DNA from: Capitulum mitella
Taxonomy: Eukaryota > Arthropoda > Thecostraca > Pollicipedomorpha > Pollicipedidae
Reading direction: 5' to 3'
DNA length: 64,000 nt
NCBI GenBank assembly: GCA_030062745.1
Contig: CP099849.1
Span: 23,300,144 to 23,364,143, forward strand
Shown one piece after another: positions 13,664 through 61,957 of the stretch (positions within the stretch are counted from its first letter, which is position 1; each line of letters starts with the position of its first letter). Below the pieces are notes generated by a model that saw only the letters and a list, made by a program, of their open reading frames with translations, was not told the DNA's origin and ran no database searches. The position numbers and the translations under genes are program-made.

Positions 13664-15616
13664 CTTGAACGCTAGTGCCTAAGGAGTTCGAGGTCGGCAA
13701 ATGTGCGCTAGAAATGTGACTATTCGAAAGCCATTTGTCAAAATATGTTTTTACGCGTAACCGAGAGAGAAGAAATCTTGATATCACATATACGGAAAAA
13801 TGAGCCAATGCGCAGTTGCTGATTACAGAGCAAAAAATAGCTATCAATATTGCGAGTTAAGTTCTTGACACCGTAAATATTTTCCTTCGTCTTTGAGTTT
13901 CATCAGTCTTTCACTTTCACTGAGGCTGAGTATGAGGAAAGTGAGTGTATTTGGATCATCTCTAAAAGAAAGTTGTCACGCAATCCAGCGCAGCGCTACA
14001 TATACGGCTTGTTACCAACTGTGTTGAAGCCTACTACAGGCGGGCACATCGAATGATATTCACCGGCGTACGTGCTAGTGTTTTTTTGCCGAGATCAAAA
14101 GAAAGATGGTGTTTGAGGTCGCGCGTCGAAATGGAGGAAGCTACATTTGAAGTGTGTTTTTTTACATGAATATTTGTGTAGTGTAAAACAATCTTACACT
14201 CTAACACAATCTTATAAGGTTCTGATTTGCCCTTGGTTTATTTCCTACTTGCCAGACTGCTGTCTGGAATATCATGGCTCCAGAATAAGGGTTTGACCTG
14301 GCTCTGAGTGTTAGAGAATATCTGGTTATTCAGCATGGCAGAACCTAAAAAGGTTATGTGAGCAGGAACAAATTTTAACATTTACATTCCATCTCAAAAT
14401 ATATGTTTCATTGACATCATTAGCAGATGTCAAGGTCTGTGCAGGCTAGACATCACCCAGGATTTAGTCCATTGGGTTGAAGAAAGCAGTGAACCAGTGT
14501 GACTGACTTCATATACATCAAATTGCTCATGCTTGCTCTTGAAAATTTTTGAATGGCTGTCAGTTTGTTTCACTATGTAAGTTTGCACTATATTGTAAAA
14601 TTGCCATTATAAACTAGGGCCTTTGATAATCATCTGTGAGGTCATTGGCAGTCTTCATTGATCTTTCATGACATTGTACACATTACTGGCTACTGCATGC
14701 TATTTGGAATCTTGCACAATCATGGTATTGATTAGCATTGAGCAAAATTAAGAAAGTGGAGAATCTCCCAACATTATCTGTTTGGTGCAATTTTGTCATG
14801 ATTTTGAGCAACAAGAAAACAACTTTTGGCTGAAATGTGCAGAAATAATACACTGTTTGCAGAATTCCTTAGACAAAATATGGCATATTTTAGGCCAAAT
14901 TGAAAAAAGACTAAAACAAGCATTTTTTGGTCACAGTTAAATGATTCAAAGCTATGTGCACATGAAGTTATAAGTCTGCAAGATGCAATACAACTACTGA
15001 GAGTTGTACAGACCTCACAGTGTTTTCTGCATGTTTGATTTAGGTCATGGGGTTATTTTTAAAGTTGTTAGGTGCCAAACCATTTTTTATTTGTTTACAT
15101 GCAACAGCATTGGTCTTATGGTTAAAGTAACCTAATTTGGTTAAAGTAAAGTAATTATGGTTAAAGTAACCTAAAGATTCATGGGGCACCTCCCACCTGC
15201 TCTGTTATTGTCTACATCAATGACTGAGACTTAGTCAGCTTGTGACTTAGCTCCTAATAAATTGTGCATATAGGCAAACATATATCAAACATACTTAACA
15301 GAATGGTGAACTGATATTGTTTTGTGTTGGTGATCTCACTTGTTCTTCCAGAAACAAATGCTTTAAAGCTTCTGTTAGCTCTCTTTGCTCTTCATGGGAC
15401 TTGAGTCTGCTGATCAGACAACATAAAGTCAAATATTGAGGTTCTCACAAAACAGAACTGGAAGCCATGGTCATCTGACATGTTTGTGCTAGTGTTGACT
15501 GTTGATTGATCAAAAGTCACTGCAGGTGCTATATGGTGCCTTCATGATGCATACTACCAACAGGATGACACCGCAATTGACGTATAAGCACATACATCAC
15601 AGTGTTGGCCCCAGAA
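13664..15616. promoter_or_regulatory. Divergent intergenic region between RBM45 and the zinc-finger gene
   Basis: The two genes start in opposite directions, 1.95 kb apart between start codons. The first 450 bases or so (13664-14130) keep many CpGs, as expected of an unmethylated promoter. From about 14140 to 15568 I find no CpG at all, which suggests transcribed 5' sequence of the zinc-finger gene. The promoter is inferred from layout and composition. I saw no reliable core promoter motif. Confidence 0.4.
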
Positions 15617-18600
15617 ATGGAAGAGAGCATTTTGCCTCTCAAGACTAAGAACAGCTCAGAAATGCTGTTGTTGAAACGATCAGGGAAAAATGATAATGTG
15701 AATAATTTAGGCACTGAAGGCTGCAGTTTACAAGTAAGTAATCAAAGGATAGCTCCATGTTTATGTCATGGTTCCTGGCTAATAGTCTGTTTCAAAGGTT
15801 TCCAATTTTTAATTGCTTGTCACTGATTTATTATTACTGATTTAACTACATAGGCTGTGGTAATACATAATTATATGATGCACATAATGTACTTGTCTGT
15901 TCAGTTCAGTTTATTTGCAAATCTTTCCATTGCATGGATTACTGTTTGATTCTAGTCATTACAGTACAGCACATGTGCTTTTGTCATACAGATAAAACTA
16001 GAAACGGACGTGGGCTGGTCTGAATGCGAATGGAGTATATGTTAGCCATATTGGTGTGGTGGCAGGTCCAGATTTGGAGGGAGGAACCCTGGCCACCAGC
16101 AGGCCATGCTTTGCCCTTGCTGGAGCCGTCCAGCCGACGTGACGCTGCAGGCGGTAGCCAGGCCGGCGGGGACGATCAAGCCGGCCTGTCGCCGGCGGAC
16201 GGCTCTGTGCTCAGGCTGGTCGTGGACGTGGGCCGGCCGGACGTCACACTGCACCACGGCAAGAAACACCAGTACAGGGTCAGTGGACCCGCCAGGGATC
16301 ACGCTGGCGTGGGGCGACAGGAGCCAGTGTTTCTCTTTAGGGTAGTGTTGACTAGGGGAAAGCACAGCTTTAGTTTAGTGGACCAGGTAAAGCAAGCAGG
16401 GGCGAGAGCACTATGCCGTCGCGGTTTGGTGGCTTTCCCGTGCGCCATATGTCTGCCGCTGTATGTGGACCGTTTTCGGTGCATTTGCCTGCCATTTGCA
16501 TACATGTCATTGTCTCCATTGGTCGTACGCTCTGTTACTTGTTAACATTGATCGCCAACTTGGTGCCCCGGTTGCTGTCGATCAGGTGTTGGAGAAGCAG
16601 ACGAATCCTCCGGCTCCGGAGTTTGCCCCTGATGCGAGGAACGTCCTTGTGCCAGAGGACGACTGCAGGCGCCACTACATCCTCTTCACCAACAGCGGTG
16701 GCACAGTCAAGAAAACTTGGATGTGCAGTGTGTGTAAGTTCATGTAGATGAATGACGTTATGGATTGGCATAGATAAGGTGTAAGTTATTTCATACTTGC
16801 GTTAGTGGGGAAAGTTCTTAGCATCCTTTGCTTTTGCTACAGCTAAGAAAAGTGGTTTATGTTGCGCTTACGTACATTTCGAGAGCTGTCACCTCATCTG
16901 TTTGGTATCACATTTGAAATTGTCTTAAATGTGCAGCAGGAGCCAACTGTTCACAGTCTTGGAACCAAACCGACGAAACGCTTCGTTTTCACTATAAGGC
17001 GTCCATAGCTGACCGAAACATAACATATAGCATTAAATGATTAAACTTGCATTATTTCATTATGTTGCAGTGACTGAAGGAGTTACACAACATTTGCGTT
17101 TTGACGTTTTGCGATTGACATAAGTCAATGCAGAAGCGATAACCAAAGTGTTATAGCGGCAGTGCAGGTGTCTTTATGCCCTTTTATGATTTTCTTCTTG
17201 GGCGGGGGGATTGACAATCATGTGAAGTGAACAGCTTTTAGATCAGGGTTTATACTGTGCAGAGCCAGTATAAATACTGTGTAGCCATTATATATGCTGT
17301 GCAGATTGGACAGACCCAGATCCTGCCACCCAAGTAGGCCCAAATACGGTTTAATTTTTCCCCAGACACCGATGCCGCTGAGGGAGCTTTTGTTTTGCCA
17401 CATGTGAAGCATGTTACCGCAAAGCGATTGGGAGCATTTCATTTGCACTGAAGTTATGGTAATGATTTCTAACGCAGGCATAACTGCCTCAGCGCGCGTA
17501 TTGTATTATAGCGGGTTTTTTTTTTTTCGTAGTTATTGCTACTCAAGATAATTTAAATTGAAAGAAACTGAATGAAAAGTGCTTTGCGCTGAAATCGGTT
17601 TCAGTTCGTGATATTCCACGCAATGCCCAGTTTCACTGGCTTGACGTCGTCGACTTTTCCCGGGGGCCGTTGCGGAAACGAGAATCATGATGTGCGAGTC
17701 CCATTCTGGACAGCTCTTCAAATTTGCATCGTGATCGCTAACGAACTGCAACGCATGTCGTTATTATTGGTGTCACTTTTCAGCCAATTCTGACAATTTA
17801 GAGACGATTGCAGGTCTCTGTCAGTAGTACAGTGTAGTGGTCGTTCATCATTGTGGATATCGGATTTTGAAACTGAATCCTTGGTTGATACAGATGCTTG
17901 GATGCAGAAGGTATTTTTTTATGTATCTTACCACATTGTTTTGACTTTCCGCTGTAATACTTCTACTTCAGTAGTCACACGTATGTGGTCTTGGGCTGTT
18001 CCACGGACGTTTTGAGACGTTGTTCGTCCTACTCTTTGTGTCGTTACCAGGTGGCAAAGAGTTTCCTAAGCAGTACTTCCTGATGCGGCATCTGAAGGCT
18101 TGGCATCTGAGCATCAGAAAATTCAAGTGCGACAAGTGTGATAAGGCGTTCAAAACGGTAAGGTTGCATGCATGTTTTGTGTTTTCCATGGTGATGGTTG
18201 CATTTACGTCAGGAAAAAATAGCACAAAATATATCCAAGGAAAAGTGCAAATGGTGTGTCTTTTCAGTCTTACGCGATGCCTCTTCCTGATTAGAATGTG
18301 CTTGTATGGATTAATTTGAGAGATAATTGCACTGGTGTACTGTGATTAAGAAGACGGAATTATTTTGCTGTCGTGTCGGCTGCTGTTCCATGGCAATGGT
18401 CGGTGTAAGGACGGTCGTGCCCTGACGCGGCCGGGGGCGGAATTATTTTGCTGTCGTGTCGGCTGCTGTTCCATGGCAATGGTCGGTGTAAGGACGGTCG
18501 TGCCCTGACCGCGGCCGGGGGCGCTGCCGACAGAGGAACGGGCTGGTACAGCACAGCGTCCGCCACTCGTCGCTCCGCCCGTACGTCTGCCCTGTCTGCC

Positions 18601-28767: not shown

Positions 28768-31700
28768 ATGGCTTCGGGGGGCCACGGCGGCCAGCAGCTG
28801 ATCGTGGTGGTGACATCTTCTGACGGACGGGAGCAGGGGACCGATGAACACTCGGATTCACCAGATGGCAAAGTTGACATACCGCCCAGTAAACGCGATC
28901 GGAAAAGGGGCAAGGGGCAGCCCTGGGAGGAGGTGTGTACGGTTTTATCGAAGGAGGCTTTGCGCGATTGGCTGAAGGAAAGTGGTGAGTACCTACTGTT
29001 GTATGCTTTCAAGTCATAATTGGCAGCATTTGCCAGAGTATTTGCAAATGCAAGAGCAGGGGAGAAGAGTTTTCAAGATGTGTTGAGTGTTTCCCCTTTC
29101 ATTTGTTTGAGGAGAAACTATCAAAAAGGGACTGTAAACCCTCCACATTCATCATCAAGTGTTAGGATATGTAGTGTTGCATTCATAAAGGTGTGTGATC
29201 ATTTCAGTCATCCCATGAATAAACACATGGGCATTTTGTGTATGAATTGGGAAAGACATGGAATATAGGTCAGCATGATCTGTGAGGATATGATACATTG
29301 TACATGGAGTACAGCAAATTCATTGGCAAGTTCAAATCAGCTATCAAAATGGAAATTACTCAGCATTTTCATCATGCATGCTGTGAAGTGGCATTTCATC
29401 GGCAATCCTTTAGAAGCGCACGCCATAAACCAAGCACACTGGATGACACATATACAGCGCGTGTGGCAAAAGGAGACGTCAGCTGTTGCAAGAAACAACA
29501 ACATTATGCACTGGAGCTCCAGGGTCGTAGATCACCTACTATTCGCTCTTGTTTTACACAGTAGGCATATACTAGCTTATCTTTTGGCTACTGCATTCTG
29601 GAACGCCTTCCCTTTTCAAAACGTTATGTTAGGTTAGGTTAGGTTAGGTTAGGTTAGCGAATAGTAGGTGATCCACGACCCTGGAGCTCCAGTGCATAAT
29701 GTTGTTGTTTCTTGTGACAGCTGACATCTCCTTTTGCCACGCACGCCGTATATGTGTCATCCAGTGTGCTTGGTTTATGGTGTGCGCTTCTAAAGGATTA
29801 CCCATTTCATCATTGTGATCTGTGTATGATGACGTGAATGCAATGCTAATCTTTACTAAGTGTGCCACCATGGCCAGAATTCAAGGTTTGTAAAAAGATT
29901 CTACGGCCCTAAGGCAATTGCTCGTGACGTCACAGAAGTCCAAGTATAAGTCCTGTGGGACAACTGAAATAACTCTCCTCAGTGTAGTGATGCAAATGTC
30001 CGTAACATGGCAGTAGATTGTATAACAAAAGATTGCAAGCCAAAGATTGCAAAACAAAAGATCATGTGAGATAACAGTTAAAGGACAAATGTTGCATGGT
30101 AAATGTAACCCGGCACCAGGTATGGGATAATAGAGTCAGCAAGCCATTAAGAGGGTGCCAGTCGGTCTTGGCTCCCTCCAACAAAGAGATTAGGTCCGCC
30201 AAGCGCGGTGTTAGGTTATATCGAAATAGGGCCTGTTTAGATACAGCCTAATTAAGTGAGTTGTAACCTGATAACTTAATTAGTGTACCCTGTTACCTAA
30301 TGAGCCTGACAATCATTAGGTTGTATACTTGTGATGTAATTACCAGGATACATTTAAAAATGGTCCAGTTAAATATAATGTAATACCGCCCTCAGGGGCA
30401 CAGCCAGGATTTTTTTATGGGGGTGGGAGCTCTGCATGAACTAAAATCATACGAAAACGCGTGCTGGGAAGACAGTGTGCAATGGATTCCACAAAACTGC
30501 AGGCCTAGGGGGGGGGAGTACGGGCCCCCGCGGGCCCCCTTGGCTGCGCCTGTGACAGCGCTTAACGCAGCCTCACTTTGCTTGACAGAGCCAAGTCCGA
30601 TTGCGCCCTTTTGTCGGCCTGCGGCCTGTAGTATCCCGCACCGCGCCTCCGGCGCAGGGTTTCGCCTTTGGCGCACCATGTCCTTTGATATTTTTCTCAA
30701 ACGATCTTTTGCCGTACGATCTGTGGGTTGCGATCTTTTGTCATACGATGGTGAATAGGGACTTTTTAGACATAACAATACCGCGCTTCGTCCGCAGTGG
30801 CATAGCCAAGGGGGGCCATGCCCCCCCCCCCCCAAGAGGACTGCCCTGCGGCCGAGCGGCCCCCCTGGGGCCGAAAGCCACAATTTGGATGATGTTAGAC
30901 GACCGCAGGGCATCTTAAGTTGTCTGACGCAGAAAATTAAAACAAAATAGGAATATTGAAGTATTAAAAAAGGGCTACGATGCTAAAAAACGTATCCCGA
31001 ATATAAAAGAGGGCTTTGTATGTTATCAAGTAGTCTGAATGAGTGTTGAAGGTCTCTGCTTGCTTGTAGGGGAATTCACTGCTTGTCTGCGGAGAGCCTC
31101 CTGTCGGTGCATATGGGGTCCCTGTCGACCTCTGGAGGGACCTCCCTTCGGTGTGCAAGACGGCCGCTGACCCTGCCTCCAGAGGCCGACAGGGGCCCTT
31201 TATAAGCGTACAGGGGCCCTGTACAGATAGGCAGTGCTCTCTCCTTTTCCCTACAGGCTAGCAGGGACCCCTAAAAATTCATTCAGGGGCCCCTGCTTGC
31301 CTGTAAAGATGCCTCTGCTGACCTGTAAGGGCACCTTCCAGGTCGGCGGGAACGTTTTAACAGGCAAGCAGAGACTCCTTTACACTCCAGTGAGGCCCCT
31401 TTACAAGCCGACAGTGATTTTGACCACATGGGAATCCCAATGATTACGAGGTTCAGGCACGGATCCAAGGGGGAGAGATGGGGACGATCGTCCTCCTCCC
31501 CGGATGTCGGGGAAGGAGGATCTTCTCAGACTCAAAAAGGGGCCCGAAGGGGTCCGTATGAGCTTCACGGGTCTATGCATGTACCTGACGGGCTCTTGAT
31601 GCAGCCTGGGGGGTCTCCAGGAGGGTTAGATAACCCTTGAGACGCATGGAGGGCCCTTGAGAGATACAAGTTGAGAACTGAGTCTCTAGGACAGAAGAGG

Positions 31701-45434: not shown

Positions 45435-46346
45435 ATGGGAAGCCAGGCAAATGATATTGATGAGCTGTTTGAGGTAAAGAATTCCTTCTATCTAGGGAAC
45501 TACCAGCAATGTATAACCGAAGCTCAGAAGCTTAGGGTGAACACCCAGGAACAGCGCTTGACGAGAGACATCTTCTTGTATCGTTCATACATTGCCCTGA
45601 AGAAGTTCAGCATTGTGAAGGATGAGATTCATGGTGCATCCCCACCAGAGCTGCAGGCTTTGAAACTTCTGGCAGAATACCTGTCAGGCTCGCAGTCACA
45701 GCGTGACAGAGTAATAGCAGAGGTAGACAAGAAGTTTTCTGGTGACATTGATCCAAACAATGTGCCTCTGTTTCTTGCTGGTGCAACCATTTATGCCAAT
45801 GAAAACAATCATGAAGCTGCTCTGAGGGTCCTCCACCAAGCTACAGACCTGGAATGCTCAGCTCTCACACTTCAGATGTATCTGGCAATGGACAGAGTTG
45901 ATCTTGCTCAGAAAGAACTGAAGGCAATGCAGGAGAAGGATGATGATTCAACAGTAACCCAACTTGCACATGCCTGGTTCAACATCTGTGTTGGTGGTGA
46001 AAAACTTCAAGATGCCTTCTACATCTACCAGGAACTCATTGACAAATCTGTTCCAACACCATTACTGCTGAATGGCCAGGCATCATGCTTCTTGGGAATG
46101 TGCAAGTATGAAGAGGCTGAGCCAGTGCTGCAGAGTGCTCTGGAGAAGGACAATGATAATCCTGAAACCCTTATCAACCTGATTGTGCTGTCTCAACACA
46201 CTGGAAAGCCTGCTGAGGTGGCTGCAAGATACCTGAGCCAGCTGAAAGATTCCCATAGCAACCACCCATTCATGAGGGACTACCAGGCAAAGGAAAATGA
46301 GTTTGACAGGCTGGCTCAGCACTATTCCATGATGGTGAAGTCCTAG
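45435..46346 (+). CDS. COPE: Coatomer subunit epsilon, intronless
   Basis: Epsilon-COP is a subunit of the COPI coat that drives retrograde Golgi-to-ER transport; it binds and stabilises alpha-COP. The frame is a single uninterrupted 303 aa, close to the usual 300-310. It begins with DELFEVKNSFYLGNYQQCI and is helical throughout with TPR-like repeats. Family segments include LFLAGATIYANE, AWFNICVGGEKLQDAFYIYQ, CFLGMCKYEEAEPVLQSAL and NPETLINLIVLSQHTGK. The end YQAKENEFDRLAQHY is also typical. Every other long gene in the window is cut into many exons, so the lack of introns in this CDS stands out. A retrocopy origin is possible, but a 5' UTR intron seems likely. The last two thirds of the gene contain no CpG. 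Confidence 0.97.
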   Translation: MGSQANDIDELFEVKNSFYLGNYQQCITEAQKLRVNTQEQRLTRDIFLYRSYIALKKFSIVKDEIHGASPPELQALKLLAEYLSGSQSQRDRVIAEVDKKFSGDIDPNNVPLFLAGATIYANENNHEAALRVLHQATDLECSALTLQMYLAMDRVDLAQKELKAMQEKDDDSTVTQLAHAWFNICVGGEKLQDAFYIYQELIDKSVPTPLLLNGQASCFLGMCKYEEAEPVLQSALEKDNDNPETLINLIVLSQHTGKPAEVAARYLSQLKDSHSNHPFMRDYQAKENEFDRLAQHYSMMVKS

Positions 46347-46523
46347 GCACATCTTGTTTGCCTTGATGTCTGCAACCATTGGATTTGTACATTTGGTGAA
46401 TGGACTGAACAGGCTCATATGAGCTATACTTGAGGTGGTATGTCATTGTGGTATGCATCATTCCAGGGTGATGCTGACTGAGTTATAAAAGATTACCATA
46501 GTAGGATTTTCTGTCATGCTGTC

Positions 46524-46529
46524 AATAAA
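46524..46529 (+). terminator. Poly(A) signal AATAAA of COPE
   Basis: AATAAA lies 178 bp after the COPE stop codon on the same strand, in an AT-rich context. No genomic poly(A) tract follows. Confidence 0.6.
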
Positions 46530-46949
46530 ATGTTGGATTGCTGTCATTGCACTCTGCCATTTATTTTTTGTTGATTTTGGATTTTGAAGAGATCCAAAAT
46601 GAGGTGCTTTGACAATTAGTGGTTGTCCTATTATTGGCTATGGGATAGCAAGAAACAACATGGTGGCACAGGGAATCTTCCAGATATTGTGTGAAGGCAA
46701 GCAGTTTTCATGGATCTTGACATAGAACATTGTTGGTTATCATGAGAGAAACTTGAGGTACTTTGCATCTGCATCATATCAGTCACCATACAGTTTTGTA
46801 GCTAGCTTATATAGATGCTCCATGGGGTCTATCCCTCACCTCTTCCCAGCATGCCAATGTCTTGCCAAACCTGGAGCTTCCTCTTCTCTCTGCATCCATC
46901 CCACTGCCCCTCCGTCAGTCTCCGCTCTGCCTTGATCGCCAAACGCCCG

Positions 46950-48252: not shown

Positions 48253-51200
48253 CTAGCCGGGGCTGCCGCTGACCCGGTACCGGCGCAGGTGCGGCGCCGA
48301 CTCGGAGGCGGCCGCCGCCCGCAGCTGCAGGTAGTTGTCGTCCCCGATCGGCGCCATCCTGCCGGCCACGGATTGTATGAGCGGTCGCACGGTCGGCACT
48401 GCGCCACACGTCCAGACCGTGTACCGATGTAGCGCTAGACATGCCACGTACCCATAATTTCATTAACTGACACCTTCCGAAGGTGTGCGGTCTTTCCGCA
48501 ACGTCAGGGACTCGGCCTGCAGCAACGCTTTAAATATCGCACGGAAATCGACAAAGACCACAACAAAAGATTACAATTCCTTCCTAAAAACGTCACCCGC
48601 AAGAACCTTCTGCCTCGAGGCCGCCACCAGTCGGCGGACCGCCTGCGACACTCCCAGCGGGGCTAAGACGACCGAACGATCCCTGGTACACCCTCCACTC
48701 GGCCACTCCCCAGCTCAGTCTCCCGGTGACGGCCGGCGGGACCCAGCCGACCGACTCGGCCCGGGCCGCGCTACCAACCTCGAGCCGTAGCGAATGCCGC
48801 GCGCCAGAGTGCGCTTGTGATCTCGGTGCTCCTGCTCCAACGAGATCACCGCCGACACGATGTTGTTGATGGTCTTGAAGCCGACCTCGGTGTCCTGGAT
48901 CTTGTAGTTGGGGTCGCCCGAGTAGACCGCCTGGTAGCCGTACTCCTCTGTCGGGCGGTGGCCTCGGGTTAGCGGGGGACCAGGACAAACGGCAGTGGCC
49001 GGCCTTCGCAAGCCACAGCGAAGCCTGCCGCTGTCTCCTGCGTCCAGCGGCAGCACCGGCGAGAGGACGACCGGCTACCACGCCCCAGCCACATCACATG
49101 GGTCAGAAAAACGCCTCAAGCTTTGGACGAGGTCTTGAATCAGCCACCAGCAGTGGGTATTTACTTCCTGACGTGATCGGTCACTATGGTTTGTGCGCGT
49201 CGACTGCGTGGCCACACGTCATCCGCGCCCGCGGCTGACCCGAAACAAAACAGCGAGCGCATCCGGGAGCTGACCGCGCGGCCGGGCAACGACACTGACC
49301 CTTCAGCTTGCCCAGCTGGTCGAGGTGCGCGAAGAACAGGGCGTACAGCCGCTCCATCTCGCGGTCGCTGTCCGTGGCCAGCTTGATGTCGGCGTGCAGC
49401 TTGTCGGCCGTGACCGGGGCGCAGCCGATGGCGTTCTTGGTCGGCGTCCGGCAGCTGTCGGGCCGGCACGGTCTCAGTCGGGCGGCGACCGACACAGCGG
49501 TGTCGGGGTCTGGCCCTCGGCTTGCCCCGTGTTGGCGAGGCAGACGCTAACGTTTCGATTCGTCCGTTAGGCGGCCTATCGCCTCCCCCGTCCCTCCCTT
49601 CTTTAACCTATCAGTTATCGCGGACAATCGCAGTCGCAACCTATAGTCCAACAAAGACGATGATGCATCCCGCGGGCTGTACGCGCGTACACGACCTGGC
49701 CCGATTGACAGCTAGTCCGGCCGGCAGACTGGCGGGCGCGCGCTCACTGACCAGGTCCAGCTGTTGTCGCGGAACTGGCCAGGGTGGTACTGGTCCGTCT
49801 TGTCCTGGTTGTGGGCGCACACCTTTGACAGGATATCCATCCACGCCTTTTGGTCCACGCAGTTGCTCGCCTGTGTGTACCGACCACGGTCGATCATGGA
49901 CATCAAACAACAATGACAAAATCATGGACCATCAGGGACACCCCTTCGCTTTAATGTGAAGGGTGCCCTGATGTTACATGGCGTTATGATATATAAGATG
50001 TTCAATGGTAGATGAACTATTTATTAGTTCCCACCCAAATACTGTTCGCTGCCATTAATGAGTTATTAAAAACACCGTAAAAAACGGGTGTAAAACCAAA
50101 AATATCATTCCACGAATAGTTCTGCAGGCAAAAAGGCATTCTTCTAGTAAAAAATTAACAAGTCGGTGCCCGCTGGTAGCAATGCCATAAGTATCACAAA
50201 GAAATGTAAAAGCCAGGGCCGGGCCGGCCATCCTGTGTAACTTTTTTTCTGGTTGTTGAAGACTCATTCCCTTTATGATTTCACTCGTAATCAACCGCAC
50301 CTACATGATCAATGCTGCGTCTCAAATGACGTACCGTAACGCAGCTATAAACTCTAAGGAGCGTAACATGACAACTTCTATATTATAAAGAAAACGGCTG
50401 AAAGCAGCCTGCCTGTGTGAATAACGTTATAACACGAAGCCATTTTCTGTGAAAATTGTTATCACTTCCATCACCGCACGGATTGACCAGAACAGGCTGC
50501 GACGGTGCAGTTCTGTATCAGCACGCACCTGCATGTAGAGATCCCTGTCGGGCTGGCACAGCTTGAACATGTTCTTCTTCTTGAACTCCGCCTCGTCCAC
50601 CACCTCCACGGCCCTGATGTTGTCCACCGGGATCTCGTAGATCGGCCGTCGCCCTGCAGCAAGGGTTCCGAGTAAGGGGCCAAGGCTCGAGCGGGGGCCG
50701 ACCGCCAGAAGTTCGCGGCCCGTCCTCGCGAACCGGAACATGGTCCACGGCAGCCGGCCGACAACGACACAACAGCGCATCCCACTGCCCTCGTTAGGAG
50801 AGCGCGCCTGGCAGTGTTGGAAACCTGGTTTTTCTTCCTGGTGTCGGAGTACAAATCTCTTTTGGAGTATAAAATGTCATGCGTTTATGTGAGAAACATG
50901 GACTAACTAGGTGCTTTGCAAGCATGTGACCAGGAGGGGCGGATCCAGGGGCTCCGTTTTGGGGGCAAACCAGTTTCCTGGGCCTACATGGTAGGTCAGA
51001 AGAGTCGTTGACCAGGGGGGGAATGCAGAGTGCACTTCAGCAGCTGAGTATGGATGGTAAACCATCAACCGGAGGGGGAACGCTATGCAACTACAAACTC
51101 TGTTGAGTAGGAATACCCATGTCTTTTGGGAGGAGCAAAGCATTTTGGAGTACAACATTTTTCTTGGAGGATAATTTTTTTGGTGTTCCTTGACACCAGA

Positions 51201-54200
51201 AAACGACAGATTTTCCAACACTGGCGCCTGGTGTTGGGCAGCACGTGCGGGACGGTCCGACAGAGCACCGACTGACAGAACGGGAAACGTACTAGACATT
51301 GAGCAATCCGTTCCTGGTGCAGAGGTAAACAAAAGAACACCGCAATTTCACGGTATCGTCATTCCACTTCAGGGCCTTGCTTTTGCGCGTCAGCACCGTT
51401 CTGGATAAATGCCACGCATGACCATGCAGGCATAGTTAAAGGGCACAGCCCTCAAAATCCGGTAGGCGGGAGGGCCTCACCTTTCTGCGTCGAGTAGGTC
51501 AGGCTCCGGGTGGTGAGACAGAAGTAGCGCTGTCGGAAGTTCTTGAGCCCCGGCAGCCGCCTGCCCAGTGCCCGCTTCACCAGCGGCCTGACGAAGACCA
51601 GCGATCGGCTCAGAGACCGCAGCATGGGCCCGCTTTCGATCACCGTGACGCGATAGATGGAGCACTCAACCGGGCAGAGCGCTGCCGCGTCACGCGCTGA
51701 TTCCACTGTCGCACCCGATGCTGGCTATAACTCACCACCGAACGCAACACGGGGATGCAACCAACCGGGACGAGTACTGCCAATGCAAGGGATGATTCTC
51801 CTGTCACATCCGATGCTGGCACTAACTCACTATTGCCTGGTCGGGAACAGAGAACGTTCCCATCTCCAAGAAAGCTTTCTTTTTCCCCAACTAGGTTTAT
51901 TCATCGAGCAGAGCTGACTGATGGCAGCAACACTATGCTGATGTAGATCAGAAAGTCAGACAGCCATGTGTGCTGCAGCCTCACCAGTTTCCAAGCCCAG
52001 CAGCTATGCAAAGAGAGTCACGTTAGGCATCTGTGGGTCTTTTGTGGGTAGCATGTTAGTATTAGTAGACCAACCAGCCTCCACCCCCATTCATCACCCT
52101 CATCACCCATCACGTTGACAATGACGTGCCACTTGACAGAAACCGTCACAAACACGAACACTCCAGCAAAGCCGACATTAAGTCGCGCTCGCTGAACAGA
52201 GTACACCACACAGAGGTGAAGGACGCACGCCCCTTGAGTCTCTTACCCTTCTTTGAGAATGATGGGCGCATCCAGTGCCTGGTGAGGAGCAGACTCCGTC
52301 GATATTACGTCCAGAAACTGCAAAAACGAGTGCAGGAAATCAGCGGCGCACACAGGTCCAGACTACAAATGTCCCTGGCCAAAACAAGGCGGCGAACATC
52401 ACACCTGGCCACGTCAACCCCGAGTCAACGACTACAACTGATCCGCAGCAGCTATCACTTCCCAACGGCAGCAGACATTCGGATCACTCTGCGCTCTAAA
52501 ATACTCTCCCCTGGCCATAGTCTGGTCGGAACCGAACGCCGCAAGATACCCGCAGAGTGCCACCCACTCTGCCCGCGCTCCTCGCACGTACCACCCGCAG
52601 CTTCTGCAGGTAGCTCTCCGTGAAAAAGTCCTGGTGCACGGGCGTCATGTACTCCTCCTTGAAGGTGACGGCGCACCGCGAGCCCACGCAGCTGCCCAGG
52701 CTGTTGATGGTCTTGGAGATGAGCTTCAGCGTTCGGCTCGTCTGAGTGTCCTGTGGGTCAGTACGGCCAGGCTTAACAAGATGCCCCAGACCGGGAACAG
52801 AGCAGCCTCCGCTGACCGACACTGCGAACTCCAGCGCATGAGGCTTGATGCACAATCCATGTCCACTACGAGCTGACAGGACCAGGCTCTCGCGATGCCC
52901 ATGTGGCGTCATTTATGCCCACGAAGCGACGGCGAAGGCAGGCCAAGAAACCTTGTTCACGAAAACATCTGTAACCACCGCAAAATATGTTGTAGGGTTG
53001 CCTCATACAAGAGACATCCTGGACTAGCTATTCTCTTTAAGGATGGCAAATGCATAACATATAAGTTGCCGAGTTAACGCCACAATGTCCGATACAGCAA
53101 TGTCCTGCAGGACAGACGTTAACCACTCACCAGCTGTTCCTGAGTGAGATCGAACAGCTTCGGGTTGAGCAGCGCTGGCGCAAAGAACCTCAGGAACACG
53201 AACCCGGAGAGCACGCAGTACTGTACCTCCTGGTTATCTGCAATGGACAAAGATCCGACCTTCGACATCCAAGACTCCACAGTAGTGCAGAGGCAACCCA
53301 TTTGTGTCTCGGTGAGCTGGGCGGTCTGGTTATCTAGCGCAGCTCCCAACACCGCCGGTCATTTGCCCGTTATCGAGCATCGCGCTAAGGCCAGCTTGGA
53401 TGCACGTTGTCTTGTAACCGTCTGATTCTGCTACAGTGCATTTACCGAAAACATGCACACACTGCTGAGATTTGAGATGCTTACAGTAAGTGACCTGCGT
53501 TGCGCGGGACATCCACATTACGTGACGACAACATACCAGTGCACAGACGTTTGTTGTAACTCACCACCGTGAGAAGAGCGGCTACGAGCGGGAACGACGG
53601 AAAGCGGCAGGTTTGCGCCGCGCAACCAGCGATGGCTTAACACGAGACATTCCCACTGCCAGCCGTCCGTGGCGCGGCCGACTGCGGGCGGCTGTCCGCC
53701 ACGGGCCAGCACAGCCTCCGGACAGAGGCCGGCCGACGGCCGCAGCTCACCTGGGAAGAACAGCTTGGCCTGCCGCTTCAGCGCGAAGAACACCCGGCAC
53801 ATTATGGACGGACACTGGTAGGCCGACTTGATGATGGCGTCGAACGTCTGGCGGATGTAGTCCTTCAGGTTGGCCAGGTTCGTCTCGAGCCGCTCGCCGT
53901 CGCCGATCTTGCCCTTGTCCACCTGGCGGCGGTCGCCGGTGTTACGACAGACAATCGTGTCGCACGACGGTAACCGAACGAAGCTGGTGGTAGAGGGACC
54001 ATGGGGACAAATGCCGGCTGATGCCCGCCACTCAAATTAAATGACTAGTATCCAACATGCTGGCAGAACTTTTGTACACAATGGACACTGGTCCTTATCA
54101 TGCTTCCATATCTGTTTCAAAATAAGTTTTCTGGCAAACTGGTTCTCATCAAGTTTCCATATTTTGTCAAAATAAGTTTTCTGGCAAACTGGTTCTTATC

Positions 54201-57200
54201 ACGCTCCCATATTCCTTTCAAAGTCAGTGTTCTGGCAAGAGAAACAGTTGAATCCAGGCTGATGGTTTTAATACCTAAAACGGGAGTTTATACACCCCAA
54301 GACTCAAAAAATAATCACACCAATCAATTAATCACTCCTCTGCACTTCCACTTCACGAACGGCATACCTCGCAAGGCTTCTTCTCTTGCGTGATGCGTTC
54401 CACGACCGGTTTTAGAACCGTGTGCAGGTAGTGCTGCCCGGCCAGCTTCATCAGCTCGTCCATGCACTTGGAGACGAGCGTGTTGCCCCGGAAGATGGTG
54501 TTCGGATCGCTGGCGAAGGTCGGAGCGGTCAGTCGGAGCGGACGCGGCCTGGACGAACCGGCCGGAACCGGACGGACCGGCCGACAGGGTCTGTGCCGGG
54601 GCGCCGGGGCGTCAGGATTGGTAACTAGTGGGGTTTTAGGGCGCACTGGCAACTAGGCGATTTCGCGTCCATGTCGCGGGCTCAGTGACACGCACAACAA
54701 AAGATGAACCAGTCCCACACACACCAGGGGACCACAGGGCACGAGTGACCGCCAAATGAAGTGATCATGACCAAAATGATCAAAAGCCACTGCAGTGACC
54801 CGCCCCGAGCCGCAGAAGGTCGCCAGACAGAGCCGTTACTGACGTTTCTCGGGCGATCTCGTACGCTGCGAGCGACTCGATAAACGGTGCGATCTTGCCG
54901 TGGTGCAGGAACACCCGCACCAGCGGCTCGGCCGCCTCCTGTTTGTTGGCAGCCACCTCTCCCAGGATGTAGGCGGCGCTGCAGGTCACCGGCTGCCGAT
55001 GGCGGGGACAGGGTCACCACTCCGCACACTAAACACACACAGTGGCCACCACCCTGTTGGTCGCTCGGGATATCACCGGCTGAAGTTTGCGACTCACGAA
55101 ACATTCAGCAGGCCCGCAGGCCACAGTGAGACTGTCAGAGACAGAACATATACTGGCCAGTGAACTATTTAAGTTGCACCGGGATAGCATGGGTTTCCTT
55201 TTTTCAATCTTCTAGAAGCCACCTATTAATAGGTGGCCTGGGTTAACATGGAACATCCTGGGATGGGCAATTTTTCCTTCAATCGGGTTCACCTAAAATC
55301 ACGCCATGGCGCTACACCATAATCTGCCGCTGGACGACAAATGTGAACAACTGACTGCTGGGACATAAACCAGCTTCTCAATTCCGTCTGTGCCACCGGC
55401 CTTTCCTGAACAACCCTCGCGTCTCCCAGTCGATGCCTCTGATGACTGAGCACACGATCCCGGCCTCCCGAGCCGGCGTGGACCCAGTGGGCAGCCGGAG
55501 CGCGCTCACCTTGACGCCGGGACTCTGCAGGATCAGGTTCAGCAGCTGGTCGTAGTGCTTGGAGCTGATCACCTCGTCCGAGGTGTACTGCAGCTTGACC
55601 CGCAGCGAGCCCAGGTCGTGCGCGATCACGCGGTTGTTCTCGCGCGGCTGCAGAAAGTACCTGGCGGAGGCGAGACGTCGCCACTCAGCAGAGCTGCTGA
55701 GCTGATGCCTGCACACGTCAGGCTCAGACGTCACACTGCTGCTGCGTCGGGACCTGTTGCCGTTCAGCCCGGAACTGGCTTACTGGCACTGACGAAATGG
55801 ACCGGCCGTTGCCATTGCAGCCATTAGCAGAACGCAACAACACAGCACGTACTGCCAAAGAACCAAATCACGCCCAAGAAAGAGAGTGTTACCTGAAAGA
55901 TACTTCAAAGCATAATGGACCTAAAAAACGCAAACGTAAGACAAATGACAAAATGACAAAATGATTCATGCATACACCAAACAAACAGGAAACAACGAGC
56001 CAAAGCCTGGAAATCACGAGCGGCAGAGCTCCCTCGCCCAATACCCGTGACCGGCGGCTCACCACGTATCGTAGCCCTGGTTGAGCTTGAAGCCGGCCTC
56101 TCCATTGAGCGTGATCCGGACCTCGCCGAGGAAAAGATTGCCAAAGATGCCAGTCGATTCGTGCCAGACGGTGACGCGCAGCTGCATGGCGGCCAGTGAG
56201 TCGGCCGTGATCTCGCTCGGCCGCTGCGACATCTGCCGGCCAGAGACCGTCCGGTGCGTCACATGCCGGGTCTGATCACAGGCGCGTGACACGCCGTCAC
56301 AAGCCAGGTCTAGACACCAGGCTTGTCACAAACAAGGTCTGGTCACCAGGCGCGTCACACGCCGGGTCTGGTCATCAAGTGCGTCACAAGCCGCATTTGT
56401 TTATCAGGCGCGTCCCGTGCGGAGTATCGGCATCAGGGTCATTGCGCGTGTGGTCCGACACACCGCGACGATCAACGGACACCCATCAGGTCCGATCCAA
56501 CAGCAGTCACACCTCACGATGGCTATTCAAGATATTTCATGCAAATGTTCAGCTGAAGGAGTGATGTCTGGGCCCGAGGTCGTGCTAAACATAGCTTTTG
56601 CATGGGCTCTGAAACACATCCTCGATCGATAATTCTAGGTTAACGGCTCATAACGGCTCAATGGGCCATCTAGCTCACATATGATCACGAGATTCCTGGT
56701 CTTCGGCAGACTGCATCCAATTTCAACATGGGCGTGCCTACAGGTGGCCAATCTGCTAACGCAGATGTGCTCATCGACACCACCTCACACATACAGAACA
56801 TCCTTCAAAATCCCCACACTCATGAACATGAGCCAACATTTGGCAACAACCACAAAACACAAGGTAAATCACACAGGTCATTCATATGGCTATTTGAAGG
56901 TAAGAATAAATGCATAATCAAAATGATTCCTACTGGTCTAAAATAAGACGAATGTTGAATGTTTTCATAAATGGACGCGGCTGATCTGAAAATGCCATTC
57001 ATAACATTTTTGTGCCTCTTTTTCAGAAAAAAGAACAGCTGCAAATAGCACACGATTGAAAAAAAAAAAAAAACGAAAAAACAACGGGAAATCGCTTTGA
57101 ACCTCTGTAAGTCCAGACTTTAGAACCCGTATTATATTAGCCGGTACATTACAGATCGGCTTCTAAGACTACAGGCTACAACTTTGATCTCCATCCAAAC

Positions 57201-58994
57201 GTGTAAAGGTGGACCATTCCCTATGAATGCCACAAAACATTAAAACATCATACCTCAAAGTGGAACGTTTCATCGAAGTTCGGGCAGATTGTTTTGTTCT
57301 TCTTTTTGGTGCGTTTTGACTCCAGCTTCTCGTTTTCGCACCAGAGCGAGACGTTGACGTGCGGGTCGCACGAGCCGTTGTTCTTAGTGAGACCACTGCA
57401 CTCGATCACCCTGAGAACGGCAGGCACATCAAGTAAATATCGCGACTAGGGATGCATCGGATCGCGGTCTCTGTGATCCGGCCGGATACCGGATATGCCG
57501 GATCGGAGTGCAGGATATCCGGCCGGATACCGGATATTATGTTTACCTGCTTCTGTTTATTTTTTTACAGAAAACAATGCGACAAAAAGGACTAAACTAA
57601 AAAAGGAAAAATCTGGAAAACCTGCAAAAATATTAAATAAAATGTTAACACTGTGAATTATTCACCATGGTGCCTACACTTACTGTGAGGTTTTCATAGG
57701 TTTCCTTGCAAAAAATAAGTAGGTAAATAAAGAACACAACAATCATAGCAGAGGGTAAACTAAGAACAACAACCACCACTCACTGCATGCAAAAGCATAG
57801 GTGTAACCACAGTTCAGAAACTGGGGGGGGGGGGACAAGCTGGCTACAATCCACCAAGAATAGGTGGAGGTGGGGGGTAACATCACTTTTTTCGGTCGTT
57901 GCATAACGTCCGGTTGAAATTCCTTCTGTTGAGTTTCAAAGCTCAAGAAATTATGCCAACCACAGGAAGTACCTATTTGATACTTAAAAATTCAAGGGAT
58001 AATCACCACTTCTGGAAAACAAAGTGGAACATGCCCCCCCAGCCCACACAGGGATTTCACCCATAAGCGACTCCAGAATATGGAAAATGGCACTGCAGTG
58101 CCTTAGTGGAACTAGAACACCTGGCTTGACAAGTATTCTATATGAATACTAAGGTATGCATCTTGAAGTATACTGCCCCTTAATGCATTTGCATCAGAAG
58201 ACCTGAGAAAGGTAAATGTTTGAAAAATGGAAAGATAATACATCACAAAATGGGTTGCTGGGCATATGCTAGCTACTGTCTCACAGCTTTGAGTTGGGGT
58301 CCCAGTCTTCCCAAATATGTCTCAACTTTCCCAAACTACGAAGAAAAAGTGGCGTTCCAGACAGACCATGGAAATCATAGTTACAATGACAATCTAAGAT
58401 AACAACGCACATTTTTCCTGAAATGGTTTTGTAGGCAGACATTAGATCGTACACCAGGAGGTTACATTCCCGGCAATATCCAGAAATATCCGGCCGGATA
58501 CTGGGTAATTTCTAGAATCCGGCCGGAGATCCGGCCGGACCAGATATCTGGAGCATCCCTAATCACAACCAACGTCCATACTGTATATGCCATATACAAC
58601 ATCATACCATACTACCATCTGGGTGCAATCCACCCTAGAACCAGCTGGGATAAACTACAATAAGCCACCAAAGCGGGATGACCAGTGTTTCCGTCATGAT
58701 CCAAGCCTACCAGCTTGGGAATACAGACTTATTCCAGCACTGATTTTGACATAAGTATGTAATCTTCTGGCTTTAACAGATGAGCCATGTGATCCGGAGT
58801 ATCAACTGCAATGTGGACTTGCACATGCACAACTAGGTATTCAAATGATTATGAGAAGGCACTTCTTACCAGGCAAATACTAATACAATCAGCAATTAAC
58901 ACCATATGTTGATAAAAACATGAACATTATTGTTATTACAAGTGCCACAGATAATCAAACATTACAATGTGACAAGTGCTGGACAATGAACATG

Positions 58995-59049
<55 letters not shown>

Positions 59050-61957
59050 CACATACACAACACATGTGTATATACACACATACATTAATGTATATAACAA
59101 AACAATAACACTCAACTCTTGTCACAAATAGTAAAATCATAGCATTTATTACACTAGCCTTAACACCTCCAAAGTATTGCATACCTCCACTCCCCCCTGT
59201 CGACTCAATTTTAACAGAGCACTTAATCATTCTGAACAAGCAAATTAAAATCTTTAGCTCAGTGGACCCAAAACATAAGAAATACCCAAACCAGTCAACA
59301 AACCCAATCAATAATGAGACTGTTGTGACCTAAACATCAATAATAAGACTGTTCTGACCTACACATTGTTCTCAAGGAAATCCAAATAATGTTTTAATTC
59401 CAGATAGATCACTTTAAATTTCCATTTTTTCTGCTACAATAAATTTCTTTCAAATTTAATTTTCACCATGGACATTTTGCATGGTAACCAGATTACTCAG
59501 CACTCAACAGACACAGCATACTCTTATGTGCATCATATTACTGCTACTTCTGTTCCTATTCAATGCATACCTGTACAGCACCAACTGTTCTTCGGTACAC
59601 AAAACAATCTTACAGGTGTACTCATTAATGTCCTATGCTGTTTGTCCACTTGGCACCTCAGCTGCATGCATTGGCCAGTGCAAGTTCATATCAGGTTTTC
59701 ATCAATGAAACTACGCATCTGGTTGGTAGATCACCACAAGCAATTCCATTGCCCACCCAATAAGGAATCAAATGGTGTATACAGGGAAGGGGTGTATGAA
59801 ATAGCTTCATGAATAGGCCACATGTAATGTGAATGCTAAACCTCTCCATGGTTGTCCAAAGTTCTTACACCTCTATGCCACATTTTAACTCAGGCCGCAA
59901 TCATTATCATCTCTTAAAAAATACGAATCCAGTTAATGCCTCATGGCATCAAAATCAAAGGAAACAAGACAAAACTGGTTTTCTGTGTGCAATACCCTGC
60001 TCACAGTGCCCACCAGCCATGGTGGGAGCTGGTGTCAGCAATCTTTTTGTGAGGGTAAATCATGGCAAAGGTGAACCCAGAAAACACAAACGTTATTCAA
60101 GACAATGCCTTCAAATTTACAGCCTTATCAGTTACTAGGATAGAATGTGCATACTGTTTAACTCCACTCCCATCATGGGAACATATGACTTCAATCAAAA
60201 ACTTTTCAGTATTAGTAACATCTGTACCACCTCCTCTCATCTCATGAAGAGGTAGATATTCATGTACACCTGCCTATTCATAAACTGGCCTTATAAATAA
60301 AAAGAAATAATGACACTAGGACTGCTACTACACAAAAATGCAGTCAACCTGATCACATCTTAACTGAAGCACCCACATTTATTCAAAGGTGCTTGTTAAA
60401 ACATGGGACTGCACTTACTTGACACTCAACCTGGTTTGTGTTGGAGCATCTTCTGACTTCTGAATGGATTCCAGCCTGATTTCAAGGTGTACTTCACCCT
60501 GAACCTCTGAGTCACAATCAACTGGTAGGATTTCAAACCAGTGATCCTTGCCATAATACTTGTGAAGGTCTTCCTTCTTCACAGACACTTTTCCCAAAAC
60601 CTAGAAAAGGTTGCTTTGTATTCATTTCTTCTCACATTTCTGCTCTTGTTTCAAACAAACAGAATCAGGACCCAGATCAGAAGGTATGAACTGAAAAAAT
60701 CAGGGCAATGACAGTAAATCTGGGTAACATGACAATGAGAAAAATCCTAATGTTTTTATCTTATGGTCAATAGTAAATTTTACCTTGTCCTGTTTTCCAC
60801 TTCTTTCTCTGTCATATATGTAGAACGACAGCCACCGGAACTTTCTTGGAATGTCAAAGTTGTATTCATCTCCAAAGAATGGGCTGTCAATAAATTCAAG
60901 ATTACAAAGGGCACATAGCTGTAATTTACATACCTGCCATAAATTAACCAAATGTATCATGTTTATCACTGTAACTGCAATACTTGTTTAACATACATAC
61001 ATTCTTGTATATTCTTACACTGCATGCCTGCTCAACATGTACTTTTGAGCTTAACAGAACACCTTCTGCTGCACTTTTGGCCCAAAGAATATGAAGCACC
61101 TAATACATGCAATTCCAACATACTTCAAAGCCATCTCAGAAAACTAAAATGCATAGCTGGAGTCACAACAATCATGAGAATTTCTTGAACAAACTCTCAG
61201 ATGTACTTAGTAGAAAGGTACTGCACCAATGAATCTCACTTACATTTAGGCACCTACTGCATGAACAAACTGAAAAGAAATGCCATGCATGCAAAAAAGA
61301 TTGCCCTTACTTTAAGGTTTTTTCTACAGTGTTAGTCCGATGGATTTCTTCCTGGTCCAAGTTCACTGTGCAGAAGACATCCCTGCTGCCCACAGAACCA
61401 TGACTGCGGGATGGCAGATTTTTTGCTTCACCTGCTCAAACAAAAAAAAAATAGTAGCATGGCATATGACATCAATGGACACATTGCATTTATTTGAGAA
61501 CAAATAACATCAGAAAATGGGGAAATGAATCACATCAAGCATTATAAACAACACTTCTCATTCACAAAATATGAATGAATGGTCATTGTGGGTGAATGAA
61601 TGGGACAAAGTACATAAAACGTCCAGCAAGATACAATCCCAGTTTTTTACAACTACTATTCGATGGGCTTTATGATGGTCAATCAAAATTCCCAAGCAAG
61701 ACAACAATGTGCATGTATCACAACAGGTTGCGACATCCACTCATTCATTCATAAATTCGTCCACCCACAAAATGCGGCAAAACACGGCGCACACGATTGA
61801 GCCCCCCAATGCCATATCCAAAGCAGAGAAACGTAGGTAATAAAACTGGCAGCACCCCGTCCCATATATCACTCGATTTAAATGCCCGTGTGTCAATTCC
61901 CTCACCGATATTTATCTTGATGCGCTCCTCAACGCGAGCTCTTGCACCTGACGCCAT
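48253..61957 (-). CDS. RASA3: Ras GTPase-activating protein of the GAP1 (RASA2/RASA3) family
   Basis: GAP1 proteins switch Ras off by raising its GTPase rate at the membrane. Nineteen exons join in phase to 836 aa; human RASA3 has about 834. Starts are 61957, 61431, 60883, 60600, 57410, 56232, 55660, 54992, 54509, 53922, 53237, 52750, 52317, 51587, 50653, 49870, 49454, 48947 and 48358. Matching ends are 61906, 61311, 60784, 60419, 57254, 56063, 55510, 54844, 54368, 53751, 53131, 52595, 52247, 51481, 50529, 49752, 49300, 48779 and 48253. Domains: C2A (1-150) with [13 protein letters not shown]2B (about 150-290) with [10 protein letters not shown]; RasGAP (about 312-553) with arginine-finger segment NTIFRGN and the [17 protein letters not shown] core; PH (about 577-690); Btk zinc motif H683, C694, C695, C705. 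The end, [11 protein letters not shown], matches the RASA3 tail. RASA2 orthology is not excluded; arthropods usually have one Gap1. Confidence 0.95.
50812..51223. mobile_element. hAT-type MITE with 8-bp target duplication
   Basis: The ends CAGTGTTGGAAA and TTTCCAACACTG are inverted repeats. The 8 bp GCGCCTGG flank it exactly on both sides (50804-50811 and 51224-51231), the duplication length of hAT elements. It has no coding capacity and lies in the RASA3 intron between the two PH exons. A truncated relative is at 35271. Confidence 0.92.
54092..54245. repeat. Three-copy tandem repeat, unit about 52 bp
   Basis: Units share TTCCATAT and AATAAGTTTTCTGGCAAACT. The third copy is more diverged. 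It lies in a RASA3 intron. Confidence 0.85.
56250..56415. repeat. Minisatellite, unit about 29-30 bp, beside a RASA3 exon
   Basis: Five copies of a unit like GCGTCACACGCCGGGTCTGG start within about 20-30 bp of the 3' splice site of the exon at 56232, on its intronic side. Confidence 0.85.
57447..58561. mobile_element. 1.1-kb hAT-type element with TAGGGATGC ends
   Basis: The ends TAGGGATGC and GCATCCCTA are inverted repeats, and both subterminal regions hold multiple CCGGCCGGAT motifs. Flanks ATCGCGAC (57439-57446) and ATCACAAC (58562-58569) match at 6 of 8 bases. Both differences are G to A in a CpG. No transposase frame is seen. It lies in a RASA3 intron, 37 bp from an exon. Confidence 0.85.
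58997..59080. repeat. (AT)n microsatellite followed by CA-rich repeats
   Basis: About 46 bp of pure AT dinucleotide lead into ACACATACAC-type repeats in a RASA3 intron. Confidence 0.97.

What the first reader, a model, noticed from the sequence alone, without database searches (positions are those of the whole stretch)
14140..61740. Kilobase blocks nearly free of CpG at the 5' side of genes, with sharp borders
By reading line by line I find no CpG in 14140-15568 and none in about 45705-46910. I find about three in 41220-43440, and very few in 10740-13100 and 58740-61740. These blocks cover the 5' introns and exons of the zinc-finger gene, COPE, LSM12, RBM45 and RASA3. Intergenic starts (13664-14130, 43769-45340, 61750-63500) and the 3' parts of the same genes are CpG-rich. 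Mosaic gene-body methylation of active genes in arthropods, followed by deamination, would give this pattern.
Basis: partly seen in the sequence, partly recalled or inferred. Interest (0 to 1): 0.75.

Follow-up and report, generated by a model that had tools for sequence, protein, structure and literature searches.

The report
CpG-free 5' blocks in gene bodies
In this probable crustacean genome a stretch just inside the start of many of the everyday genes examined has lost nearly all CpG pairs, the scar expected from long-lasting DNA methylation there, while promoters and later exons keep theirs.

Summary
Five blocks of 1.3-3.2 kb (11.5 kb in all) hold 3.7 CpG per kb, against 51 in adjoining promoters. 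Lost CpG reappear almost one for one as TpG/CpA: CG+TG+CA is 190 per kb in blocks, 192 in promoters; mirror dinucleotides barely change. That is the signature of methyl-CpG deamination, not of low GC. By the main model, blocks start 26-271 bp after the start codon in the six genes where I placed one (COPE's border is uncertain and may precede it). They are mostly non-coding, and later LSM12 and RASA-family exons have normal CpG. Of 14 proteasome genes, 10 have a block on the 5' side of, or over, the domain match, none only on the 3' side, and 4 none. Fifteen fixed-position stretches have 2.6% low-CpG DNA. DNMT1 and DNMT2 are present; DNMT3 was not found, but that search was incomplete. Best reading: 5'-restricted mosaic gene-body methylation, a known kind, here including introns and nearly saturated. 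Methylation was not measured. A young transposon inside the DNMT2 block kept its CpG, a lead towards maintenance-only inheritance.

The parts
10708..13392 (-). CpG-depleted block in the 5' part of RBM45 (from about the end of the first coding exon onward)
   Evidence: HMM: 19 CpG in 2685 bp, o/e 0.16
13325..13663 (-). RBM45 open frame with the first coding exon; start codon at 13663
   Evidence: PDB RNA-binding protein 45, E 1.1e-17; RRM_1 E 3.9e-8; 8 CpG, o/e 0.62 in 13385-13663
13400..14128 (.). CpG-normal stretch, probably a divergent promoter between RBM45 and the gene to its right
   Evidence: o/e 1.00
14132..15990 (+). CpG-depleted block, no CpG from about 14129 to 15571; possible start codon at 14131
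   Evidence: 3 CpG in 1859 bp, o/e 0.05; start codon read by eye
28768..28968 (+). Probable first exon of an unidentified gene, CpG-normal
   Evidence: open frame from ATG 28768; no Pfam match over cut-off
28969..29398 (+). Short CpG-free block 201 bp after that start codon; its right edge meets a palindromic repeat
   Evidence: 0 CpG in 430 bp; repeat 29398-29805
34871..35891 (.). CpG-depleted block, gene not identified
   Evidence: 7 CpG in 1021 bp, o/e 0.15
40598..41151 (-). LSM12 exons 3 and 4 (AD domain), CpG-normal
   Evidence: PF09793 E 8e-7 and 5.1e-11; o/e 1.12 and 0.73
41113..43582 (-). CpG-depleted block in LSM12, including a probable exon 2 (about 41935-42009, 0 CpG)
   Evidence: 4 CpG in 2470 bp, o/e 0.04; exon 2 by LSM12_LSM E 0.0029, under the cut-off
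43646..43768 (-). LSM12 first exon
   Evidence: PF21166 E 2.1e-13; 2 CpG of 3.7 expected
43583..45583 (.). CpG-normal divergent promoter stretch of LSM12 and COPE
   Evidence: o/e 0.97
45435..46343 (+). COPE coding region, one exon
   Evidence: PDB coatomer subunit epsilon, E 1.6e-114; PF04733 E 2.1e-108
45586..46906 (+). CpG-depleted block over COPE; 5' border uncertain (95% interval 45292-45800)
   Evidence: 2 CpG in 1321 bp, o/e 0.03
49406..57415 (-). Downstream exons of a C2-RasGAP-PH-BTK gene (RASA2/3-like), CpG-normal
   Evidence: C2 E 6.3e-10; RasGAP E 7.9e-8, 2e-9 and 3e-4, weak C2, PH and BTK; 7 segments o/e 0.80-1.31
58577..61730 (-). CpG-depleted block at the 5' part of the RASA-family gene (57583-58333 lies beyond a repeat end)
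   Evidence: 15 CpG in 3154 bp, o/e 0.14
57445..58564 (+). Diverged relative of a transposon; its ends stay CpG-rich beside the block
   Evidence: matches 57445-57640 and 58178-58564 to L008
61731..63997 (.). CpG-normal region upstream of the RASA-family gene
   Evidence: o/e 1.26

Best explanation
The blocks are the mutational footprint of long-lasting germline CpG methylation confined to the 5' part of the transcribed region of constitutively active genes: 1.3-3.5 kb in the large cases, 0.4-1.1 kb in several others. Shown: near-total CpG loss with matching TpG/CpA gain, position at the 5' side of genes, CpG-normal later exons in LSM12 and the RASA-family gene, mostly non-coding content, CpG-normal background and sampled transposon copies, and genes for DNMT1 and DNMT2. 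Inferred: a transcription-linked chromatin mark at the 5' end of active genes marks the domain, DNMT1 keeps it methylated through the germ line, and 5-methylcytosine deaminates to T until almost no CpG remains; the promoter is kept free. H3K79 methylation is my preferred mark over H3K36me3, by analogy with PMC13345969 and PMC12576374.
For: Stoichiometric CG to TG/CA accounting: 47.6 CG per kb lost, 45.9 TG+CA gained, GT+AC 118.4 against 116.2. Within-gene contrast: COPE after codon 50 has 2 CpG of 42.0 expected; LSM12 exon 2 has 0 of 4.3 while exons 3 and 4 have 14 of 12.4 and 6 of 8.2; 7 RASA-family segments 4.3-12.3 kb from the 5' border have o/e 0.80-1.31. The block lies on the 5' side of the match in 9 of 14 proteasome genes and over the match in one (grouping of 25 matches into 14 genes is mine, by position). 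At DNMT2 a block starts 93 bp after the probable start codon and another lies across the promoter. In 15 stretches of 5 kb, one per contig except C11, low-CpG DNA is 2.6% and no block reaches 700 bp. DNMT1 by PDB match E 1.4e-33; DNMT2 E 1.9e-20. Published precedent: in Nasonia methylation lies almost only on the 5'-most 1 kb of coding exons (PMC3794928, passages).
Against: No methylation data. 4 of 14 proteasome genes show no block within 1.5 kb of any match, and the 30 kb around DNMT1 shows none. DNMT3 was not found, so how such domains are set up is open. COPE's 5' border has a 95% interval of 45292-45800 that spans the start codon, and one parameter set puts it at 45331, before the start codon. 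The first C2 segment of the RASA-family gene, inside the block, still has 2 CpG of 4.2 expected. At the 3' border GC also rises at sites that are not CG, TG or CA (0.28-0.41 in the five blocks, 0.37-0.54 downstream, 0.33 in promoters), which CpG decay does not explain. A transposon inside the DNMT2 block shows no clear CpG hypermutability. The beetle paper also reports a distinct H3K36me3 peak at the start of methylated, expressed genes, which weakens my preference for H3K79. No control set of tissue-specific genes could be fetched.
Confidence: 0.85

Rival explanations
1. The blocks are merely AT-rich compartments or simple composition drift, without methylation.
For: Pooled block GC is 0.396 against 0.499 for the window, and GC rises downstream even at sites outside CG/TG/CA.
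Against: DNA of similar GC in the window has CpG o/e near 1 (1001-2500: GC 0.39-0.41, o/e 0.87-1.29); adding the lost CpG back brings block GC from 0.396 to 0.444, the promoter value being 0.447 (arithmetic); TpG/CpA gain matches the loss; the HMM makes no 700-bp calls in random sequence at 34-50% GC.
Confidence: 0.04
2. CpG is removed by selection (codon usage, RNA-level avoidance or transcription-linked repair) in 5' transcribed regions rather than by methylation.
For: Depletion is confined to 5' gene regions, and third-position GC differs strongly between coding segments inside (0.50, 0.54) and outside blocks (0.69-0.99).
Against: The RBM45, LSM12 and RASA-family blocks are mostly non-coding as far as homology shows, yet have o/e 0.04-0.16; both TG and CA are raised on the coding strand, TG 1.44-1.69 and CA 1.56-1.65, as expected for decay on both strands; later exons of LSM12 and the RASA-family gene are CpG-normal.
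Confidence: 0.04
3. The methylation is ancestral and has since been lost; the blocks are fossils of a past methylome.
For: Near-saturation needs long exposure and does not show that it continues; the young transposon in the DNMT2 block has 3 of 94 private CpG transitions against 9 of 386 at other C/G; DNMT3 not found.
Against: A DNMT1 gene is present whose two best catalytic-domain matches have no stop inside (the whole gene was not assembled); new CpG would arise by mutation if methylation had ended long ago, yet three stretches over 1.2 kb have none.
Confidence: 0.07

Closest known systems
5'-biased gene-body methylation of Nasonia vitripennis (PMC3794928, passages)
   Same: Low before the start codon and high after it, mostly in the first kilobase, on genes with more uniform expression, with most transposons unmethylated.
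   Different: In Nasonia methylation is mainly on exons and drops in introns; here the blocks are mostly non-coding and reach 3.5 kb. Here only the mutational footprint is seen.
Copepod Eurytemora carolleeae CpG depletion (PMC11706791, passages)
   Same: Crustacean with DNMT1 and DNMT2, no DNMT3 annotated, and CpG depletion in genes.
   Different: There the per-gene distribution is unimodal (mean CpG o/e 0.5), low CpG falls on ion-transport genes, and RNA-processing genes are among the CpG-rich; here depletion is a confined 5' block near o/e 0-0.2 with CpG-normal 3' parts, seen in proteasome and RNA-binding genes.
Colorado potato beetle methylome without DNMT3 (PMC12576374, passages)
   Same: CpG methylation on gene bodies kept in a species lacking DNMT3, in step with H3K36me3.
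   Different: Exons most enriched; H3K36me3 there rises towards the 3' end, with a further peak at the start of methylated, expressed genes.
Crustaceans Parhyale and Armadillidium in the arthropod survey (PMC7343188, passages)
   Different: Parhyale exons are less methylated than the background and Armadillidium exons only slightly above it; here the footprint is strongly confined to 5' gene parts.

Membership tests
Mosaic gene-body CpG methylation | CpG depletion confined to gene bodies, CpG-normal background | tested here: met
   (footprint only; several smaller blocks have no identified gene)
Mosaic gene-body CpG methylation | TpG/CpA excess equal to the CpG loss | tested here: met
Mosaic gene-body CpG methylation | Target genes are housekeeping or constitutively expressed | tested here: inconclusive
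   10 of 14 proteasome genes have a block; no tissue-specific gene set and no expression data
Mosaic gene-body CpG methylation | Maintenance methyltransferase DNMT1 present | tested here: met
   DNMT1; DNMT2 also present
Mosaic gene-body CpG methylation | De novo enzyme DNMT3 | tested here: inconclusive
   The 4 PF00145 matches from 6 candidates fall in two genes, DNMT1 and DNMT2; the PF17980 search did not complete
Mosaic gene-body CpG methylation | 5mCpG measured in the blocks | not testable with these tools
   no methylation data held
Nasonia-type exon-specific 5' methylation | Exons marked, introns spared | tested here: not met
   by footprint: blocks of o/e 0.04-0.16 are mostly non-coding in RBM45, LSM12 and the RASA-family gene

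The most novel reading that the evidence does not exclude
The 5' blocks are inherited by DNMT1 maintenance alone, without de novo methylation: DNA that lands in a block after the loss of DNMT3 is never methylated, so transposon insertions remain as CpG-rich islands inside CpG-free blocks and date the loss. The DNMT2 locus, where a 2.7-kb transposon with an 8-bp target-site duplication splits a CpG-free block and shows no clear CpG hypermutability (private CpG transitions 3 of 94, other C/G 9 of 386), is the first case to test.
Probability: 0.12. Interest if true: 0.8.

Novelty: new variant of a known kind. Interest (0 to 1): 0.42.

Why it matters
If methylation data agree, the sequence alone gives a map, in the best cases to about 50-200 bp, of where the germ line has been methylated over evolutionary time, in what is probably a barnacle, a group for which I found no methylome in the papers searched (the last listed 10 of 71). 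The 5' domain, including non-coding DNA, separates two ideas on what guides invertebrate gene-body methylation (H3K36me3, mostly rising to the 3' end, or 5' marks such as H3K79 methylation). Transposons inside blocks offer a test of whether methylation can be inherited without a de novo enzyme.

Tried and rejected
Low GC as the cause: rejected by neighbours of similar GC, accounting and simulation. Codon selection: rejected because mostly non-coding blocks are depleted and later exons are not. The repeat element in the RASA-family intron: 40 scored places of 770 candidates; the 9 other copies cut out (the best-scoring ones) are CpG-rich (o/e 1.54-1.69), so the family as such is not depleted. 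Strand bias of decay: TG and CA are both raised, no clear asymmetry. RBM45 3' exons: the open frames 6508-6993 and 5348-5824, which I thought might be RBM45, got no Pfam match, and the first only weak unrelated PDB matches (E 0.043 or worse), so the 3' extent of RBM45 is not known. The PDB gave nothing for the first RASA C2 exon and LSM12 exon 1. The pooled codon counts include one segment in a wrong frame (3 stops); I use only that call's per-segment rows for the others. The UQ_con search was answered with 50 places but without loci, so those genes were not examined.
Full report
What is there. The window lies at C11:23300144-23364143 of a 477-Mb genome in 16 contigs. Contig lengths are 18.3-45.5 Mb. 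A published stalked barnacle assembly, Capitulum mitella, has 463 Mb in 16 chromosomes, the longest 45.43 Mb and the shortest 19.66 Mb (PMC8416341, passages), so a barnacle is likely; this is inference and no species was identified.

Observation. A two-state model on CG against TG/CA events gives ten low blocks, 22.6% of the window (sum of the list), five of them over 1.2 kb. Seven blocks of 700 bp or more are called again under five other parameter sets, with borders shifted by up to about 340 bp; none of that size is called in 200 kb of random sequence at each of five GC levels from 34 to 50%, and 6 at 30% GC. A permutation within GC strata never reached the observed longest run (1000 permutations, maximum 137 against 264). 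Borders are sharp (95% interval under 200 bp) for 6 of 10 and diffuse (226-557 bp) for 4 of 10.

Signature. Pooling the five large blocks (11,489 bp) and three adjoining promoter stretches (4,500 bp), CG falls from 51.3 to 3.7 per kb, TG+CA rises from 140.4 to 186.3, the sum stays at 190-192, and GT+AC stay at 116-118. Adding the lost CpG back would lift block GC from 0.396 to 0.444, the promoter value being 0.447. This is what CpG-specific C-to-T decay predicts and what low GC or codon selection does not.

Anatomy. COPE (PDB E 1.6e-114), RBM45 (E 1.1e-17), LSM12 (Pfam E 2.1e-13) and a C2-RasGAP gene with weak PH and BTK matches, of the RASA2/3 kind (the name is recalled from the domain order), are confirmed. 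The zinc-finger gene is only a C2H2 exon near 18.5 kb. LSM12 and COPE share a divergent CpG-normal promoter with a block on either side; RBM45 and a block to its right are arranged alike. By the main model the block starts 271 bp (RBM45), 186 bp (LSM12), 151 bp (COPE), 201 bp (gene at 28768), 93 bp (DNMT2) and 26 bp (a proteasome alpha gene, L016) downstream of the start codon I placed: 6 of 6. Two cautions: the COPE border has a 95% interval of 45292-45800, spanning the start codon at 45435, and one other parameter set puts it at 45331; the start codons of DNMT2 and of the gene at 28768 rest on open frames and recalled motifs. In LSM12 the probable exon 2 has 0 CpG of 4.3 expected, exons 3 and 4 have 14 of 12.4 and 6 of 8.2. 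In the RASA-family gene 7 segments from 4.3 to 12.3 kb have o/e 0.80-1.31; the first C2 segment, inside the block, has 2 of 4.2. COPE, without introns, is depleted from codon 51 (2 CpG of 42.0) to 560 bp past the coding region.

Elsewhere in the genome. The 25 proteasome matches fall, by position, into 14 genes. Within 1.5 kb of the matches 9 have a block on the 5' side, one has the block over the match and beyond it, 4 have none, and none has a block on the 3' side only (strand checked by translation for 8 loci). Blocks that end within the fetched pieces are shorter here (360-1112 bp among those listed). In 15 stretches of 5 kb at one fixed position on each contig but C11, 2.6% of 74.5 kb is low and the longest block is 633 bp. 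The 30 kb around DNMT1 has no block; the 30 kb around DNMT2 has five. Coding sequence follows the blocks: COPE and the L016 gene inside have 2 and 9 CpG of 41.9 expected each and third-position GC of 0.50 and 0.54; four proteasome segments and one RASA segment outside have o/e 1.06-1.38 and third-position GC of 0.69-0.99.

Machinery. PF00145 finds two genes: DNMT1 on C2 (PDB E 1.4e-33) and DNMT2 on C4 (E 1.9e-20). No DNMT3 appeared, but exons can be missed and the ADD-domain search did not complete. [quoted passage not shown]

Mechanism. Most likely: long-lasting germline methylation of the 5' part of active genes, kept by DNMT1, eroded by deamination. 5' restriction with low methylation before the start codon is known from Nasonia. 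That non-coding DNA shares it fully is not the Nasonia pattern; in two crustaceans exons and introns differ little (PMC7343188). H3K36me3 rises to the 3' end in the Colorado potato beetle, though methylated, expressed genes there also have a peak at the start (PMC12576374); in Nematostella remethylation is fastest at the 5' end, with H3K79me2/3 (PMC13345969). H3K79 methylation is therefore my preferred guide, as inference.

A test case. In the DNMT2 block a CpG-rich stretch (28755862-28758578) coincides with a repeat that has inverted ends and the 8 bp CTCTTAAC on either side, so probably a transposon. It is 92-95% identical to 7 of the 9 other copies fetched, over about 1.6 kb (one of them in two pieces). 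Its private changes show CpG transitions at 3 of 94 and other C/G transitions at 9 of 386 sites; the seven other copies together have 10 of 646 and 42 of 2,693 (sums). So CpG is not hypermutable in this family at large, which fits unmethylated transposons, nor clearly in the copy inside the block. Either the insertion is very recent, or transposons are excluded, or nothing methylates new DNA there. The more diverged repeat in the RASA-family intron likewise keeps most CpG (21 of 24 CpG positions, 116 of 146 others), but it lies at the edge of the block.

What does not fit. GC also steps up at the 3' border at sites outside CG, TG and CA: 0.28-0.41 in the five blocks, 0.37-0.54 downstream, 0.33 in promoters. 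CpG decay alone does not explain this. In honeybee, germline-methylated genes recombine less and GC-biased conversion is strong (PMC4406589, passages), which might be a cause here; untested.

In print. No barnacle methylome turned up in three full-text searches of open-licence papers (and 10 papers, all listed, 10 of 71 listed). The kind of phenomenon is known; this is a clear, nearly saturated variant that takes in non-coding DNA.

Noticed in passing
L008 (C4, about 28755844-28758590): A probable transposon with inverted ends and an 8-bp target duplication splits the CpG-free block of the DNMT2 gene and keeps its CpG; many related copies elsewhere (770 candidates for one end).
   Followed up: partly
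window 8208-18500, 38613-49400, 54900-63500: GC content outside CG/TG/CA sites is higher downstream of the blocks than in them for all five genes compared, beyond what CpG decay explains.
   Followed up: partly
window 29398-29805; L027 3062-3168: A palindromic repeat lies exactly at or close to a block border in two loci, so some sharp borders may be insertion edges.
   Followed up: partly
window 12464-12599 and 12961-13096: Two copies (77% alike) of an unidentified repeat, both inside the RBM45 block.
   Followed up: no
window 31001-33000: CpG o/e 0.39-0.52 with little TpG/CpA excess (mean o/e 1.02-1.14): low CpG of a different kind, probably the composition of a repeat.
   Followed up: no
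C2:33040001-33070000: The DNMT1 region itself has no CpG-depleted block in 30 kb; the 5' end of the gene was not located.
   Followed up: partly
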